Positions 1 to 41,507 of a stretch of 41,507 nucleotides of DNA are shown one piece after another. Both the position numbers and the translations under genes were made by a program. Under the pieces are notes generated by a model. The model ran no database searches. It was not told the DNA's origin and was given only the letters and a program-made list of their open reading frames with translations. The stretch comes from Anaerolineae bacterium (lineage in GTDB: Bacteria; Chloroflexota; Anaerolineae; Aggregatilineales; Phototrophicaceae). The DNA lies in the NCBI GenBank assembly GCA_025454525.1, contig JALOOG010000044.1, positions 1-41,507 of the forward strand, given 5' to 3'. The number at the start of each line of letters is the position of its first letter. The first letter of the stretch is position 1.

Positions 1-660
1 TTTAACCAATGCGAACTCACCGCAGATCCCTTCTACCTCGCGGGTGGACGTTGGATCGAAGCGGGGGATCTGGTCGTTGGGGATCAAATCCGCACACTGG
101 ACGGCAGCTACGGTACAGTTGAGCGTGTCACGATCATCACCCAAACGGAGACGATGTATAACCTCACGGTTGACGAGGCGTATACGTTCTTCGTTGGCGA
201 TGGCGAGTGGTTGGTGCATAATCTATGCGATACGTTAGTATTAGAAACTGCCGAAGATGGGAGTGTTTTTGCCTATGGCCGTGATGATGTAACAGGTGAA
301 ACCGTTGGTTTGGGTTTGGGTCAAGTAAATCAGGATGGTTTTGTAGAATTAGCAATCTATGTTAAAAGCCATAGTTCAAAAACGAACATTAAGGGAGGTG
401 AGGTATTTAAGGCCTTGTTGGAGGCACTGAAATCAAATAACCCAAACATTCAAGGGATAATGGGAATCTGGAGAGATGGCGATAACTTAGCAACGTTTAA
501 CCAAAGGATAGGAGCAGGTTTATCGCTTTCAGCGGCTGCATTAGTGACATTTATGGGTAAAATGGCACAACGCGCTGGATTTGGGAATGCTGATGTTCAT
601 CCTTTAAAAATGAACCCAGATGGAACCTTTGCTTCTGTGAATGTGTACTTCACACCCTAA
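1..660 (+). CDS. C-terminal end of a polymorphic toxin: Hint domain plus unknown toxin tip (5' partial)
   Basis: The frame is open from the first base, so only the C-terminal 219 residues of a larger secreted toxin are visible. Residues 1-74 are the C-terminal half of a Hint (intein-like) autoprocessing domain: a DPFYLAGG block, EAGDLVVGDQIRTLDG, then YNLTVDEAYTFFVG and the closing LVHN (VHN at 214-222). Hint domains of this kind release the toxin tip by cleavage. The tip (about 145 residues) contains GDNLATFNQRIGAG and TFMGKMAQRAGFG; I do not recognise its activity. The position where family members carry TxxHPF reads TADPF, so the usual His seems absent. Composition changes from GC-rich to AT-rich right after VHN, suggesting an acquired tip. 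A hairpin terminator follows the stop. The toxin-system reading is confident; the activity is unknown. Confidence 0.85.
   Translation, partial: FNQCELTADPFYLAGGRWIEAGDLVVGDQIRTLDGSYGTVERVTIITQTETMYNLTVDEAYTFFVGDGEWLVHNLCDTLVLETAEDGSVFAYGRDDVTGETVGLGLGQVNQDGFVELAIYVKSHSSKTNIKGGEVFKALLEALKSNNPNIQGIMGIWRDGDNLATFNQRIGAGLSLSAAALVTFMGKMAQRAGFGNADVHPLKMNPDGTFASVNVYFTP
79..222 (+). repeat. Hint-domain repeat, copy 1
   Basis: These 144 bases match 1657-1800 without gaps, with 7 mismatches by my count (about 95% identity). Most mismatches are at third codon positions. The match ends exactly at the VHN codons, after which the two downstream sequences are unrelated. A shared Hint anchor followed by different tips is the pattern expected when toxin tips are exchanged by homologous recombination. 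Confidence 0.9.
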
Positions 661-681
661 TAAGTCTTGAAGTTGGAGTTG

Positions 682-718
682 GCTACTCTGTCTTATATCT
701 AGAGGCAGAGTAGCTTTT
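682..718 (+). terminator. Terminator after the toxin gene
   Basis: GCTACTCTG (682-690) pairs perfectly with CAGAGTAGC (706-714) and is followed by TTTT. It lies 21 bases after the toxin stop and separates that gene from the next one at 746. Confidence 0.65.
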
Positions 719-745
719 GCTCTAAGAAAATTTAAAAGGACACCC

Positions 746-1495
746 ATGAAAATTGGATATGATCTAGAGATTACGGTAACAGATGTGTGTAAGCTTAGCT
801 TTGTATGGTGTAATCCCGGTATGTTTGTAATGGGGTTAAATAATACAAACAACAATCATAGATATCTTATGGCATCCCCCCCGCACCCCGTGGAGATTAC
901 CAAAGGATTTTGGATTTCCAGATTTTTGATTACACAAGAGCAATGGCTAGTGATTATGGGAGAACAAAGCCCGCTTTATGTGCAAGGTGAACATCTTCCT
1001 GCCGATTGTGATTGGGATGAAGCAAATAACTTTTGTAACAGCTTACAAAATCTCTTGGTGTCGCGACAAATATTGGAAGCAGGCTACCAAGTCACTTTAC
1101 CGACGGAAGCTCAATGGGAATACGCTTGTCGAGCTGGCACAAGTACTTTTTGGTATTTTGGGGATGACCCAGATGAATTAAAAAAACATGCTTGGTATAG
1201 CGAAAATTCTCCAAACAAAAAACAATCAGTAGGTCAGAAATTGCCTAATCCATGGGGTATCTATGATTTGTATGGAAACATGGCAGAGTGGTGTCAAGAC
1301 AATTCTTGGGTATATCCAAAAGAACCGGTGTTGAGACAAGACCCAGTAACCATTAAAGTTGACTCTAATTTAATGGTTACGAGAGGTGCAGAATATAATT
1401 CGTTACAAGAGGAGTTAGGATCATCTATTCGATGGGCTGAACTAAAACACAATCCTTATCGTGAACCTATTGGATTAAGGCCGGTGATAAGTTAA
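746..1495 (+). CDS. FGE-sulfatase/SUMF1-domain protein in the immunity position
   Basis: This 249-aa protein is a compact formylglycine-generating-enzyme-like (SUMF1/EgtB-type) domain with little else. Visible family blocks are the F-V-M-G start of the fold (about 27-30), EITKGFWISRFLITQEQW, the TLPTEAQWEYACRAG block near 120, LPNPWGIYDLYGNMAEWCQD near 170, and a closing RxAE..N...E..GLRPV. AAAAGGA about 6 bases before the ATG supports the start. It has no signal peptide or membrane segment. It sits exactly where an immunity gene normally follows a toxin tip, and shares the tip's low GC. FGE-like domains also act as accessory domains in other systems (for example modifying or binding modules), so the immunity role is a positional inference; the domain call is firm. 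Confidence 0.8.
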   Translation: MKIGYDLEITVTDVCKLSFVWCNPGMFVMGLNNTNNNHRYLMASPPHPVEITKGFWISRFLITQEQWLVIMGEQSPLYVQGEHLPADCDWDEANNFCNSLQNLLVSRQILEAGYQVTLPTEAQWEYACRAGTSTFWYFGDDPDELKKHAWYSENSPNKKQSVGQKLPNPWGIYDLYGNMAEWCQDNSWVYPKEPVLRQDPVTIKVDSNLMVTRGAEYNSLQEELGSSIRWAELKHNPYREPIGLRPVIS

Positions 1496-1574
1496 AACCC
1501 ATGTTATTCTGCAAAATGGAGTCGAAGGAATAACCGATTAGAGTTATCCTCTCTTTGAAGAGATTTTAATAGAA

Positions 1575-1647
1575 CCCTTATCAGCATAAGGGAAAAGATT
1601 GGCTTAGAAACGTATCTAATTCACTATTCCATTAGTTTTAATAGTGA
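1575..1647. other. Two hairpins at the upstream edge of the orphan cassette
   Basis: CCCTTAT/ATAAGGG (1575-1581 and 1586-1592) and TCACTATT/AATAGTGA (1621-1628 and 1640-1647) are perfect inverted repeats. The second ends directly where homology to the Hint domain begins at about 1648. They may terminate transcription from upstream or mark the recombination boundary; neither is shown. Confidence 0.4.
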
Positions 1648-1800
1648 TTGGGTGTCGGGGATCAAATCCGCACACTGGACGGCAGCTACGGCACCGTTGA
1701 GCGTGTCACGATCATCACCCAAACGGAGACGATGTACAACCTCACGGTGGATGAGGCGCATACGTTCTTCGTTGGCGATGGCGCGTGGTTGGTGCATAAT
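1648..1800 (+). repeat. Hint-domain repeat, copy 2
   Basis: This is a partial copy of the Hint sequence at 70-222; the best-aligned core is 1657-1800. It keeps only the second half of the Hint domain, from VGDQIRTLDG to LVHN, and is followed directly by Cys, giving the canonical HN-C processing junction that copy 1 (HN-L-C) lacks. Confidence 0.9.
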
Positions 1801-2265
1801 TGTGCAGATGTACAACAAGACGATAAAAACCCTGTACCAGAGTATTTACCGGGCTTTGAACCAGAACCAGTACAACAGTACCTTCCAGGTTTTGATCCTT
1901 ATGAAAATCCTGGCTCCACAGGAATATACGGACAACAATTACTTGAACAACATGTAGTTGGTGGAGAATCACAAGTTTATATGGCTGTTCCAAGCTCTTC
2001 TGATAACCGAATAATTGATATGTGGGATTCACACACAGGAATTGCACATGAAGCAAAAACAGGATACACATCTATAACTACAAGAGTTGGAGAAGAATAT
2101 GGTAAAGATTTAAGGCTATTGCACGATCCAAATACGCCAGTAGAAAATGTAGTTTGGCATTTTTACACTAGCCTAACTACAGGTAAATTAGGGCCTAGTA
2201 AACCGCTCTATAACTTACTCATTGATGCTGGTTTTAACGTTGTAATTCATGGTGAATGGCCTTAA
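1648..2265 (+). CDS. Orphan toxin cassette: Hint fragment plus predicted PD-(D/E)xK nuclease tip
   Basis: The open frame can start at a TTG (1648) but there is no Shine-Dalgarno sequence, and the N-terminal toxin body is missing, so this is probably a silent 'orphan' C-terminal cassette rather than a freely expressed gene. Residues 1-51 are a Hint fragment ending LVHNC. Then come two similar YLPGF(E/D)P repeats (a linker) and a C-terminal domain with RIIDMWDSHTGIAHEAKTGY. The pattern D-(x)n-E-x-K followed by WHFY and a GPS/PL segment fits restriction-endonuclease-fold toxins of polymorphic systems. I infer a DNase or RNase tip. Recombination through the shared Hint sequence could place it on the full-length toxin in place of the tip at 223-660. 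The downstream gene at 2319 is the likely immunity partner. Confidence 0.7.
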   Translation: MGVGDQIRTLDGSYGTVERVTIITQTETMYNLTVDEAHTFFVGDGAWLVHNCADVQQDDKNPVPEYLPGFEPEPVQQYLPGFDPYENPGSTGIYGQQLLEQHVVGGESQVYMAVPSSSDNRIIDMWDSHTGIAHEAKTGYTSITTRVGEEYGKDLRLLHDPNTPVENVVWHFYTSLTTGKLGPSKPLYNLLIDAGFNVVIHGEWP

Positions 2266-2278
2266 GTCTTTAAATTTT

Positions 2279-2305
2279 AAAGTGGTAGATCAACTACCAC
2301 TTTTC
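2279..2305 (+). terminator. Terminator between orphan tip and immunity gene
   Basis: AAAGTGGTAG (2279-2288) and CTACCACTTT (2294-2303) form a perfect 10-bp stem with a 5-base loop, ending in a T run. It stands 13 bases after the toxin stop and only 15 bases before the next start, so the immunity gene may need its own promoter or read-through. Confidence 0.65.
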
Positions 2306-2318
2306 CATTTTTAATTAA

Positions 2319-2924
2319 ATGAAAGTGAATATTATGGATTATCAAATAATTAAACCGCCGTCATATAAACCGTTTTCTAATATGACCAAATTAGAGGCTG
2401 ACAGGTATTTTTCATGGTATTTAAGTGTTATAAATACTCGCATTGAAATATTAGAGAAGTTGCTTCAGAATGACTCTGACGAAGTTTGCAGAGGTTGGGT
2501 AGCCAATAAAAGTGCTAATTCTTTAAGTGTTTTAGGTAAATGGTTACAACAACAGGTTGGTTTCAGAAAGAGAACGGATGAAGATATAGCCTCGTTTGGT
2601 GCCAAATTGAAACCAAGTTTGAGTAATATATGGGTTTCAGAAGTCACGTTAGATGAAAGAACTTTTTCTCTTTCAATTGACATAGGAATGTATTTTGGTG
2701 AAACATTACGGAATAATTTAAAAAATATCAAATGGGATGTTTTTTTAAAAAACAAAAAGAATGTATATTATAACCATGTTGTTCTAACAGGTTTCTCGCT
2801 TGGATATATCTGTAATCCTACTCAAATAGTAGTAATGTTTGCTTACAATTTAGGCTGGGGAAAAGCAAATACAGATGAATTAGAAATAAAATTTCATAAT
2901 TGGTCTAAAGTTGTAGATATATAA
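2319..2924 (+). CDS. Probable immunity protein for the nuclease-type tip
   Basis: This is a 201-aa soluble protein without signal peptide or membrane segment, AT-rich and close behind the orphan toxin tip. It begins with a short motif, Y(K)PFSNMTKLEADRYFSWYL, followed by RIEILEKLL; a similar F..M...EA..YF.W......RIE.L start is known to me from immunity proteins of bacterial contact or polymorphic toxin systems. The C-terminal half is aromatic-rich with GMYFGETLRNN. Two starts are possible: ATG 2319 or ATG 2334 (MDYQII); neither has a strong ribosome site. The immunity role rests on position plus this motif and is an inference. Confidence 0.65.
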   Translation: MKVNIMDYQIIKPPSYKPFSNMTKLEADRYFSWYLSVINTRIEILEKLLQNDSDEVCRGWVANKSANSLSVLGKWLQQQVGFRKRTDEDIASFGAKLKPSLSNIWVSEVTLDERTFSLSIDIGMYFGETLRNNLKNIKWDVFLKNKKNVYYNHVVLTGFSLGYICNPTQIVVMFAYNLGWGKANTDELEIKFHNWSKVVDI

Positions 2925-3111
2925 CAAAACCATTGAAATTTAAACACTAGCAGAAATTTCTACAAAAGCACAACTTTTATTTAAAATTAATTTTAAATTA
3001 TAATTAAAAATAATAAAAATGTTATCTATCCAATTTACCTCGATCTTATCATCTTTCACCTAAATGTTGACAGTAAAATGATTAAGACCAATTCAGAACC
3101 TCTCCTCTCCT

Positions 3112-3200
3112 AGCGGGTGGTCGTCGAGGATCAAATCCGCAAACCGTATGCCAGCTACAGCACAGTCAGGCGGTTCACGATCATCACGCGAATGAAGACT
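3112..3200 (+). pseudogene. Third, decayed Hint-domain fragment
   Basis: GGATCAAATCCGC (3128-3140) and TCACGATCATCAC (3175-3187) match Hint copy 1 at 81-93 and 128-140, with degraded sequence between (VEDQIRK...YSTVRRFTIIT when translated). A 5-base deletion relative to copy 1 lies just upstream. The frame reaches a stop at 3222, and the second half of the Hint domain and any tip are lost. It is the relic of another toxin cassette. Confidence 0.75.
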
Positions 3201-3627
3201 CAAAACCCTATAGATTGTTAACTTGTCTTATAATCAAGAGAGGTGATCTTCGGATTTGTTCACTCCTCTGATTACATAAATGGAGAACGGTAAGATAGCT
3301 AAAGAAAATGATTTGAGCGTAATCTAAAGATCGGACAGATAATTTTTATATCGTATATCAATATACAATTACTACACGTTATCTCATTATAGAGATAAGA
3401 AACAAGGGTACAGATCATCGCCCCATCGAAATAAGACCATTAAATGATAAATGCTGGTGTTAAATTGGTCAGCTTCTATGAACATAAACAGATATATTTC
3501 GACATGCCGATTCGTCCTAAGCTTGACCTTCAATTGATTCAGAGAAAATCTGCTTGGCAATGGTAAAGCAGTATATCTGTATTTTTGATTTTTTAAACTA
3601 CAGAGGGATAACGGAGAAAGAACTGTA

Positions 3628-3737
3628 GTAACCTCAGAAAAATACCCCACCCATGGAGACGGATCAGCCCATGCCACACACGTCAATTCCCTCCCAATGT
3701 ATGGGTGACAGCCAGGGTGGGGTTGGACGCAAGAAAC
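3628..3737 (-). repeat. Dispersed repeat, copy A
   Basis: Read on the minus strand, this sequence aligns over about 105-110 bases with 39482-39585 on the plus strand. Shared blocks include GTTTCTTGC, GTGGCATGGG, GATCCGTCTCCAT and CTGAGGTT(G/A)CTA. Both copies can be read as RELxxVAWxDPSP, which hints at a coding origin, but neither copy lies in an intact gene. The family is not recognised. Confidence 0.7.
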
Positions 3738-3968
3738 TTTCCCGAGATTACTTATGATCCACCGCTCATAAAAATTCATTCTTTTCCCCGATTTGCCCAA
3801 AGTCCATTTCCCAGCGCTGCACCGGGTGATATTCATATGGATAGCTGACAAGGGAGTTAGGAAGTGAAATTTTTGATACGTTTGCCTTGGTGAAGGGAGC
3901 AGGGTCATCGCTTCAAAAAACATCGGTGACCAACACGTAACATTTGTTACGACTTTTCGACACATCCG

Positions 3969-3977
3969 TGCTATGAT
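3969..3977 (+). promoter_or_regulatory. Extended -10 promoter for the small ORF and kptA
   Basis: TGCTATGAT is an extended -10 element (TGn plus TATGAT). A good -35 is not apparent, which extended -10 promoters tolerate. Transcription would start near 3984, 20 bases before the ribosome site at 4004-4009. A similar TGCTAAAAT precedes the gene at 11666. Confidence 0.45.
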
Positions 3978-4018
3978 CAGCATAACACGACGCGGTTTAT
4001 CATAAGGAGCATCCGATC

Positions 4019-4153
4019 ATGATGCAGTGGAATCACCTTGTTTTTGCGCGCTCTCTCTGGAAAACTTACAATCCACCTTACCACCTTGCCGCTGTCGCCG
4101 AAAAAATTTTTTCCCAGTCGCTACCACTGCTGCCGCCACACCCTGACGCTTAG
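4019..4153 (+). CDS. Small 44-aa ORF coupled to kptA
   Basis: ATG-ATG at 4019 is preceded by a consensus AAGGAG (4004-4009) with 9 bases spacing, the best ribosome site in this region. The frame runs 44 codons to a TAG at 4151-4153 that touches the ribosome site of kptA (AGAAAGGA, 4152-4159). The peptide (MMQWNHLVFARSLW..., Pro/Leu-rich end) has no recognised family and no clear membrane segment. It could be a leader peptide whose translation sets kptA expression, or a real small protein. The arrangement is seen; the role is inferred. Confidence 0.45.
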   Translation: MMQWNHLVFARSLWKTYNPPYHLAAVAEKIFSQSLPLLPPHPDA

Positions 4154-39342: not shown

Positions 39343-39481
39343 TCCATTTGATGATGTGATGTCATAAAATGCGCCTCGCATCCCTGAATGATACTAAAAG
39401 ATTAGCACAGAGAGATGGAAAGCCGTGATAGAAAAACCGAATGGTGGCGATTAATTGAAGCAAAAAAGTAGGTACAAGAAA

Positions 39482-39585
39482 GTTTCTTGCCTACAACCCT
39501 AGCCCTCCCAATATATAGGGAACTGGCCCGCGTGGCATGGGTGGATCCGTCTCCATTGATGGAAGACTTGGCTGAGGTTGCTAAG
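39482..39585 (+). repeat. Dispersed repeat, copy B
   Basis: This is the plus-strand match of copy A at 3628-3737. In one frame it reads PIYRELARVAWVDPSP followed by LAEVAKK, close to RELTCVAWADPSP and FSEV in copy A. It lies in gene-free DNA beside a decayed toxin-antitoxin module, just as copy A lies beside decayed toxin DNA. Confidence 0.7.
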
Positions 39586-40246: not shown

Positions 40247-41507
40247 ATGTCTCACCGCAAAAAACTGATCGAAGTGGCGCTTCCCCTTGAAGCGATCAAC
40301 CTTGCCAGCGCCCGCGAAAAATCTATTCGGCATGGACACCCGTCCACCCTGCATCTATGGTGGGCGCGCCGTCCATTGGCCGCCGCACGGGCCGTGATTT
40401 TTGCATCCTTAGTTGATGACCCAGATAGCCCAGACGCACTACCCGCCTTTGTGGAAGCCTGTCAGCAACTTCCCATTGGCACGAATGTGAAGGCAAACGG
40501 GGACACCCCGCGGATGCGCCTCTTCGACTTTATCGAACGCTTGGTGACTTGGGAAGCGACCACCGACGAAGCGATCCTGAATACCGCCCGTGAATTGATC
40601 CAGATCGCCACAGAAGGCAACCCACCGCCATTGCTTGATCCCTTTGCCGGAGGCGGCAGCATTCCCCTAGAAGCACAACGACTCGGATTAGAGGCCCACG
40701 CCAGTGACCTGAACCCGGTTGCCGTCATGATCAACAAGGCGCAGATCGAAATCCCGCCGCGGTTTGCCAATCGACCGCCTGTGAACCCACGCGATCGTAA
40801 AACGGGTGATCATCAAACCGGAACCGGAGGAACGGCCCAATGGAAAGGCGCAACCGGACTCGCGGCCGATGTGCGTTACTATGGCGAATGGATGCGCGAA
40901 AAGGCTTGGGAGCGCATCGGGCATCTTTACCCGACCCACAATGGAGAAACGGTGATCGCATGGCTTTGGGCGCGCACGGTGAAATGCCCTAACCCTGCTT
41001 GCCAAGACCATATGCCACTTGTCACCTCATTTGCACTGTCCAAAAAGAAGGGTAAACAGGTTTGGGTAGAACCTATTGTGCAAGCGGGACGAGTGAGCTT
41101 TGAGGTGCGGCGTGAACAAGACGGTGACAATCCAAACATCATTCAAGCGCCGCCCAAATTAGGACGTGGGGCAAAATTTAAATGTCTTGCCTGTCAAGAG
41201 CCTTCCTCTGAACAACATCTCAAAGCGGAAGGTGTAGCGGGGCGCATGGGGGCAAAACTACTGGCAATTGTCACCGAAGGTGTAAACGGGCGTAGTTACT
41301 ATAGCCCTGATGATTATTATGTTCAAATTGCGCGTTCTGCTGAACCCATGTGGAAGCCTATGGGACGTATTTCCAATGACCGACGTTCCATGTTTACGCC
41401 TCTCTACGGCTTAACTGAATTCAGGCATCTTTTCACCCCGCGTCAACTGGTCGCATTAACCACTTTTAGCGATCTGGTCAATGAAGCGCGTGAACAAGCG
41501 TATCAGG
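40247..41507 (+). CDS. DUF1156-type DNA methylase, N-terminal part (3' partial)
   Basis: The frame is open from ATG 40247 to the window end (420 residues seen). It starts with KKLIEVALPLEAINLASARE, KSIRHGHPSTLHLWWARRPL, the N-terminal signature of DUF1156 proteins. Then come methyltransferase motif I LLDPFAGGGSIPLEA (D131) and SDLNPVAVMINK, and two Cys pairs (C247/C252 and C313/C316) that should bind zinc. The catalytic motif IV is expected downstream, outside the window. Known relatives are DNA methylases in defence clusters with DUF499 and helicase genes. It starts 31 bases after a decayed vapC. The ribosome site (AGGG) is weak. Confidence 0.88.
   Translation, partial: MSHRKKLIEVALPLEAINLASAREKSIRHGHPSTLHLWWARRPLAAARAVIFASLVDDPDSPDALPAFVEACQQLPIGTNVKANGDTPRMRLFDFIERLVTWEATTDEAILNTARELIQIATEGNPPPLLDPFAGGGSIPLEAQRLGLEAHASDLNPVAVMINKAQIEIPPRFANRPPVNPRDRKTGDHQTGTGGTAQWKGATGLAADVRYYGEWMREKAWERIGHLYPTHNGETVIAWLWARTVKCPNPACQDHMPLVTSFALSKKKGKQVWVEPIVQAGRVSFEVRREQDGDNPNIIQAPPKLGRGAKFKCLACQEPSSEQHLKAEGVAGRMGAKLLAIVTEGVNGRSYYSPDDYYVQIARSAEPMWKPMGRISNDRRSMFTPLYGLTEFRHLFTPRQLVALTTFSDLVNEAREQAYQ

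What the first reader, a model, noticed from the sequence alone, without database searches (positions are those of the whole stretch)
3628..3737. Unrecognised dispersed repeat in two accessory regions
A sequence of about 105 bases at 3628-3737 (minus) recurs at 39482-39585 (plus), 36 kb away, each time beside decayed toxin genes and near a change in composition. Both can be read as RELxxVAWxDPSP. It could be a relic of a mobile element or a recombination site flanking the segment between them.
Basis: seen in the sequence. Interest (0 to 1): 0.5.

Follow-up and report, generated by a model that had tools for sequence, protein, structure and literature searches.

The report
Old jumping-DNA repeat, over 149 copies
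The repeated 126-letter sequence is one family of small, gene-less jumping DNA (a MITE) scattered in more than a hundred copies through this bacterium's genome; it is real and worth cataloguing but of a familiar kind, and the two copies in this window have no special link to each other.

Summary
The repeat is real. Its ends lie at 3627-3752 (-) and 39467-39582 (+), and it is one 126-bp family with at least 149 matches in this genome. None was found in 40 related genomes or in 395 others of the class, the latter a coarse scan.

The evidence for a transposed miniature element (MITE) is: imperfect terminal inverted repeats, mean 11.0 of 17 identical against 5.0 shuffled; a 2-bp target duplication at exactly those ends in 41 of 94 copies, against 20 expected and at most 34 in 20,000 permutations; empty sites in flanking repeats, two with exactly 2 bp duplicated and two with 3 bp; intergenic position in 140 of 142 copies.

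It does not encode RELxxVAWxDPSP, shows no conserved RNA fold, and does not bound a mobile segment. The toxin neighbourhood is not general.

The helper transposase was not found; decayed IS630-family elements are a weak lead. Unexpectedly, IS4-family insertion sequences sit in the element's palindromic centre: for one lineage, 10 of 15 ends found genome-wide abut it. I file the repeat as a new member of a known kind.

The parts
3627..3752 (-). Copy 1 of the 126-bp MITE; left end at 3752, right end at 3627
   Evidence: Model match 144.3 bits, positions 1-126; divergence from family consensus 0.119; no 2-bp duplication (TA against AC)
3736..3752 (-). Left terminal inverted repeat of copy 1 (AGTAATCTCGGGAAAGT)
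3627..3643 (+). Right terminal inverted repeat of copy 1, read inward (AGTAACCTCAGAAAAAT)
   Evidence: Exact match to the right-end pattern
3690..3708 (.). Palindromic centre of copy 1 (consensus CCCATACATGGG); in other copies IS4-family elements sit at this point
   Evidence: Alignment A1; junctions
39467..39582 (+). Copy 2 of the MITE, 116 bp, 10 bp lost in the centre
   Evidence: Model match 107.9 bits, positions 1-126; divergence 0.172
39467..39483 (+). Left terminal inverted repeat of copy 2
39566..39582 (-). Right terminal inverted repeat of copy 2, decayed
39465..39466 (.). Candidate target duplication AA, left of copy 2 (weak: lies in an A run)
39583..39584 (.). Candidate target duplication AA, right of copy 2

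Best explanation
The repeat is a miniature inverted-repeat transposable element: a gene-less 126-bp DNA unit with imperfect inverted ends AGTAnnnnCAGRAAArT. It was copied or moved in trans by a transposase that recognised those ends and duplicated 2 bp of target on insertion, preferring CA(GA)G or its complement. Shown here: the ends, the copy number, the target duplication, empty sites, intergenic placement, and absence of coding and of a conserved RNA fold. Inferred: that a DDE transposase in trans did the work and that it is now dead or lost. Copies differ on average at 23% of positions, the closest pair is 95% identical, and no long element with these ends was found. In this window the two copies are independent insertions. 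A second layer sits on top: IS4-family insertion sequences have inserted into the palindromic centre of many copies.
For: 149 or more copies in one genome. Ends: mean 11.0 of 17 identical between left end and reverse complement of right end in 94 copies, against 5.0 for shuffled ends. Target duplication: among all tested boundary offsets and lengths the largest excess is exactly at the AGTA/TACT ends with 2 bp, 41 of 94 against 20.3 expected; 20,000 permutations gave at most 34; among the 45 copies whose left dinucleotide is not GA it is 20 against 5.3, at most 14. Direct pairs (GA/GA 21, TC/TC 7, TA/TA 4, CA/CA 4) dominate; the inverted TC/GA and CA/TG pairs are absent from the table, although GA/TC occurs 9 times. 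Empty sites: joining the flanks of L003 and L067 after removing one copy of the 2 bp gives ungapped 94% and 93% matches to uninterrupted repeats elsewhere in the genome. 140 of 142 copies lie between genes although 76% of the DNA is coding. RNAalifold on 27 copies finds 3 pairs and no covariation.
Against: 53 of 94 copies, including window copy 1, show no 2-bp duplication; age, recombination between copies and extrapolated ends could explain that, but it is not shown. The nine copies with GA left and TC right do not fit a direct duplication. Two of the four informative empty sites imply 3 bp rather than 2. No transposase with matching ends was found, and one genome with no close sister in the held set prevents a cross-strain empty-site comparison. 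Expected pairing in the permutation test depends on flank composition, and flanks are often other repeats (33 of 142 copies have ACAGAG or CTCTGT within 60 bp, against 30 of 1024 control windows).
Confidence: 0.88

Rival explanations
1. REP or BIME-type repeat spread by a RAYT tyrosine (Y1) transposase of the IS200/IS605 kind.
For: High copy number, intergenic, palindromic centre; IS elements insert in its centre as they do in REPs.
Against: Only one Y1_Tnp match in the genome, and it is a domain at the end of a 546-aa response-regulator-like protein in which I saw no HUH motif by eye. There is a target duplication, which Y1 transposition does not make (recalled). Unit is 126 bp with inverted ends rather than a 20-40 bp palindrome with a GTAG tag (REP size: abstract of PMC3733652 in the listing; tag: passages).
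Confidence: 0.03
2. MITE of the IS630 (Tc1/mariner-like) type, mobilised by the IS630-family elements now decayed in this genome.
For: 25 matches to an IS630-family transposase, nearly all broken (NF033545). Their ends also begin AGTA and finish TACT. One broken transposase gene runs straight into the right part of the repeat (L141). The repeat's left end aligns to the right end of one lineage, p 0.0016-0.0034 by shuffling.
Against: That p value is the best of 12 comparisons, so it is weak. IS630 elements duplicate TA; only 4 of 41 duplications here are TA. The three IS630 copies whose two ends could be read show no such 2-bp duplication outside AGTA/TACT, and read more simply as TA insertions at AGTACT (inference). 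L141 can be a recombinant.
Confidence: 0.25
3. The forms with an IS4-family transposase between two halves of the repeat are the autonomous parents, and the 126-bp unit is their deletion product.
For: Two IS4-type cargoes lie between repeat halves at one and the same junction.
Against: The cargo has its own perfect 14-bp inverted ends CTGAGGGGGCGACA (L203) directly inside the halves. It abuts the palindrome CCATRCATGG with a diverged 10-bp direct repeat there (8 of 10 in L203, 7 of 10 in L148, read). Two unrelated-looking cargoes share the junction. Some cargoes lie between two left or two right halves (L207, L218, L148), which fits recombination between IS copies. A 2-bp duplication is not expected of IS4 transposases (recalled).
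Confidence: 0.08
4. Recombination or integration site pair that bounds the 36-kb segment of the window, or a composite transposon.
For: Two inverted copies at either side, near composition changes.
Against: At least 149 copies genome-wide make two per 41.5 kb expected; outer dinucleotides differ; GC of the inside is mostly that of the rest.
Confidence: 0.02
5. Structured RNA, terminator or other functional intergenic element kept by selection.
For: Some single copies fold well (L004 z -4.45).
Against: No conserved fold on 27 copies, no Rfam match in the window, convergent gene pairs are the rarest context, 15 of 116, and the family is absent from relatives.
Confidence: 0.04

Closest known systems
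RUP (repeat unit of pneumococcus), 107 bp, proposed to be mobilised by IS630-Spn1 (PMC2229807, passages read)
   Same: Gene-less unit of about 100 bp, about 100 copies, intergenic, inverted ends, presumed trans-mobilisation
   Different: RUP inserts at TA targets; here duplications are mostly GA or TC and the helper is not identified
ERIC (127 bp, enterobacteria) and Correia/NEMIS (Neisseria) (PMC2229807, passages)
   Same: Nearly the same length as ERIC, MITE-like, intergenic, listed there with terminal inverted repeats and target duplication
   Different: Unrelated sequence; those are listed with a TA motif at the termini
IS elements that target REP palindromes, e.g. IS4-family ISRm22 with nine copies in REPs of Sinorhizobium meliloti, IS1397, IS621 (PMC1525189, passages read)
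   Same: IS4-family insertion sequences placed at the palindromic centre of a high-copy intergenic repeat
   Different: The host repeat here is a 126-bp MITE, not a REP, and the cargo copies are largely decayed; some lie between two like halves

Membership tests
MITE | Short (about 70-300 bp) and without coding capacity | tested here: met
   Modal length 126 bp; proposed reading frame broken in 58 of 104 copies
MITE | Terminal inverted repeats | tested here: met
   Imperfect: mean 11.0 of 17 against 5.0 shuffled, 94 copies
MITE | Target-site duplication | tested here: met
   2 bp in 41 of 94 copies, permutation maximum 34; empty sites; absent in 53 of 94
MITE | High copy number, dispersed | tested here: met
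   149 matches or more
MITE | Shares its ends with an autonomous insertion sequence | tested here: inconclusive
   No long element with these ends found; weak likeness to decayed IS630-type ends
IS630-type MITE | TA target duplication | tested here: not met
   TA in 4 of 41 duplications
REP / RAYT system | Y1 RAYT transposase in the genome | tested here: not met
   One Y1_Tnp match, inside a response-regulator-like protein
IS30-type (2-3 bp duplication, recalled) | rve-fold transposase in the genome | tested here: not met
   PF00665: 0 matches
MITE | Demonstrated transposition in trans | not testable with these tools
   Needs an experiment

The most novel reading that the evidence does not exclude
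A MITE family whose lost or unfound helper is not a TA-type (IS630) transposase but one that inserts at CA(GA)G and duplicates GA or TC, and whose palindromic centre then became the preferred landing site of at least two IS4-family lineages, with recombination between those insertions reshuffling the halves (left-IS-left, right-IS-right) and so rearranging the chromosome.
Probability: 0.35. Interest if true: 0.5.

Novelty: new member of a known kind. Interest (0 to 1): 0.33.

Why it matters
It turns an unexplained repeat into a catalogued mobile element family that explains intergenic repeats and nested insertions in this lineage, and gives a clear case of insertion sequences specialising on a MITE rather than on a REP. 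If the helper is not of the TA type, it would point to an unassigned transposase specificity. I found no description of MITEs for this group in four listings: 'miniature inverted-repeat transposable' with Chloroflexi (5 papers), Chloroflexota with MITEs (7 papers), Anaerolineae with interspersed repeat and intergenic (0 papers), and a general MITE/IS630 search (6 papers). These cover open-access papers only, and that the genome belongs to that phylum is my inference, not a tool result.

Tried and rejected
RNA structure: single copies fold well but the 27-copy alignment gives only 3 pairs without covariation, so a functional RNA was rejected.

Coding: the RELxxVAWxDPSP frame is broken in more than half the copies and shows no codon periodicity.

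RAYT/REP: one Y1 domain in a response-regulator-like protein, rejected.

Autonomous parent: I paired ends at up to 3.5 kb in the fetched DNA, searched both end patterns genome-wide (about the first 100 of 137 and of 114 places are listed) and searched transposase families PF00665, PF13358 and PF01609. The long pairs that I checked against known copies were two neighbouring copies; L203 first looked like a parent, then proved to be an IS4-family element nested in the repeat.

Exact-pattern scan of 84,980 species: 5 isolated single hits in unrelated bacteria, which I take as chance; the scan states that the window's own genome may be left out.

Toxin association: 90 of 194 neighbouring proteins scanned; FGE-sulfatase and TIR_2 (5 of 90 each) lead, no toxin family among those with two or more matches. 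A PADLOC scan of the same 90 gave scattered defence-like matches. No control set was scanned.

Rows dropped: alignment A1 holds 27 of 31 copies; L002, L013, L021 and L029 were left out for ragged ends. In one search, 8 of 23 rows were set aside because the IS terminus itself was not matched (query start 8 or later); two of those (L229, L240) also have pieces of the repeat beside them.

Full report
Observation. The window is the whole contig C59 of a 5.24-Mb draft genome in 230 contigs. Aligning 31 copies shows a unit that starts AGTA and ends TACT, modal length 126 bp; the window copies are 3627-3752 (-) and 39467-39582 (+). A model built from 27 copies (R1) finds these two and nothing else significant in the window.

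Copy number and distribution. R1 gives 149 matches in the genome, the weakest at E 1.5e-8; only 150 of 1454 candidates were scored, so this is a lower bound. nhmmer over the DNA fetched by then gives 179 distinct full or partial matches, of which 87 are full. R1 found nothing in 40 relatives, 24 of the same family and 16 of the same order (85 candidates scored in each). It found nothing in 395 other genomes of the class, but there only 8 candidates per genome were scored with strict filters, so one search is weak evidence. An exact 19-base pattern in a collection of 84,980 species gave five isolated single hits. The family is therefore, as far as tested, confined to this lineage.

Ends and target duplication. 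I took 94 copies that span model positions 6 to 120 or more and extrapolated their ends. Left end against reverse complement of right end agree at 11.0 of 17 positions on average (5.0 when shuffled). I then compared the bases left of the unit with those right of it for all boundary shifts from -4 to +7 on the left and -8 to +4 on the right, and lengths of 2 to 9. The largest excess by far is at shift zero with length 2: 41 of 94 equal against 20.3 expected. In 20,000 permutations the maximum was 34; for copies whose left dinucleotide is not GA the count is 20 of 45 against a mean of 5.3 and a maximum of 14. The duplicated pairs are GA 21, TC 7, TA 4, CA 4, AA 2 and CT, TT, CC one each. The flanks read CAGA[unit]GAG or CTC[unit]TCTG, so the preferred target is CA(GA)G in either orientation. 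Fifty-three of 94 copies show no duplication, window copy 1 among them; window copy 2 has AA on both sides, in an A run.

Empty sites. Many copies sit inside other dispersed repeats. Joining the flanks and searching the fetched DNA gave a junction-spanning match in 6 of 94 cases. L003 and L067 align without a gap after one copy of GA or TA is removed, at 94% over 54 bp and 93% over 69 bp: exact 2-bp duplications. L023 and L050 imply a 3-bp duplication (TAA, ACC). The other two (L008, L070) are tandem copies and uninformative.

Age and context. Full copies agree at 77% on average, the closest pair at 95%; median divergence from the consensus is 14%, and the window copies are at 12% and 17%. Of 142 copies above 60 bits, 140 are intergenic although 76% of the DNA is coding by my simple gene caller; gene-pair contexts are tandem 63, divergent 38 and convergent 15, against a background of 209, 84 and 76. 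There is no terminator-like preference for convergent pairs. Among 90 of 194 neighbouring proteins no toxin family reaches two matches, so the toxin remnants by the window copies (PT-HINT at 1-660 and 1648-2265) are local.

Helper. PF00665 has no match in the genome, PF01797 one domain match in a response-regulator-like protein, PF01609 three, PF13358 eleven. One IS630-family transposase (301-aa open frame, NF033545 199 bits) has 25 matches, nearly all broken. Ends of these elements also start AGTA and end TACT, and one broken copy runs directly into the right part of the repeat (L141). The best end-to-end likeness has p 0.0016 to 0.0034 before allowing for 12 comparisons. Since TA makes up only 4 of 41 duplications, I do not file the repeat under IS630; the helper remains open.

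Nested IS4-family elements. In L203 an element with perfect 14-bp inverted ends CTGAGGGGGCGACA and a broken DDE transposase (PF01609 28.9 bits, NF033591 IS4 family 61.5 bits, below that model's cut-off) splits the repeat at its palindromic centre. L205, L217 and L218 carry related DNA at the same junction. A second IS4-type lineage (L214 fragment: NF033591 at E 2e-7, also below the cut-off) sits there too. Because most of those loci had been fetched through the repeat, I searched the genome with 204 bases of the second lineage's own end: 26 matches. Of 23 distinct upstream flanks, 15 include the IS terminus; in 10 of those 15 the adjoining DNA is a half of the repeat at E below 0.01, and in 5 it is not. 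In L207 and L218 both flanks are left halves, in L148 both are right halves, which I read as recombination between IS copies (inference). Insertion of IS elements, one IS4-family member included, into REP palindromes is known (PMC1525189, passages).

Verdict. The repeat is an old MITE family with a 2-bp target duplication. It is a new member of a known kind, with a modest point of interest in the GA/TC target and the nested IS4 insertions.

Noticed in passing
L003 flanks; L142; flanks of 33 of 142 copies: A second dispersed repeat rich in ACAGAG (e.g. TTTAAACCACAGAGAACACAGAG) is enriched beside the MITE (33 of 142 copies against 30 of 1024 control windows) and contains its CAGAG target.
   Followed up: partly
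L155 / C70:3939-4305: Three head-to-tail copies of the MITE with a period of about 126 bp.
   Followed up: no
window 3944-4020 and many loci (e.g. L172, L194, L067): A recurring stretch like ACATTTGTTACGACTTTT...GTGCTATGAT...AGGAGCATCNGAT, some of it directly upstream of start codons; it is a further dispersed repeat or a shared promoter region, and some IS630-type elements lie in it.
   Followed up: no
L068 814-2454 (C34): A 546-aa response-regulator-like protein ends in a Y1 transposase-like domain (PF01797, 38 bits) in which I saw no HUH histidines by eye; it may be a domesticated Y1 domain.
   Followed up: no
window 1-3200: Serial pretoxin HINT fragments (1-660, 1648-2265, remnant near 3100-3200) with variable downstream genes and low GC look like a cassette array of polymorphic-toxin tails.
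   Followed up: no
window 40247-41507: A DUF1156 / DNA-methyltransferase-like gene runs off the contig end.
   Followed up: no
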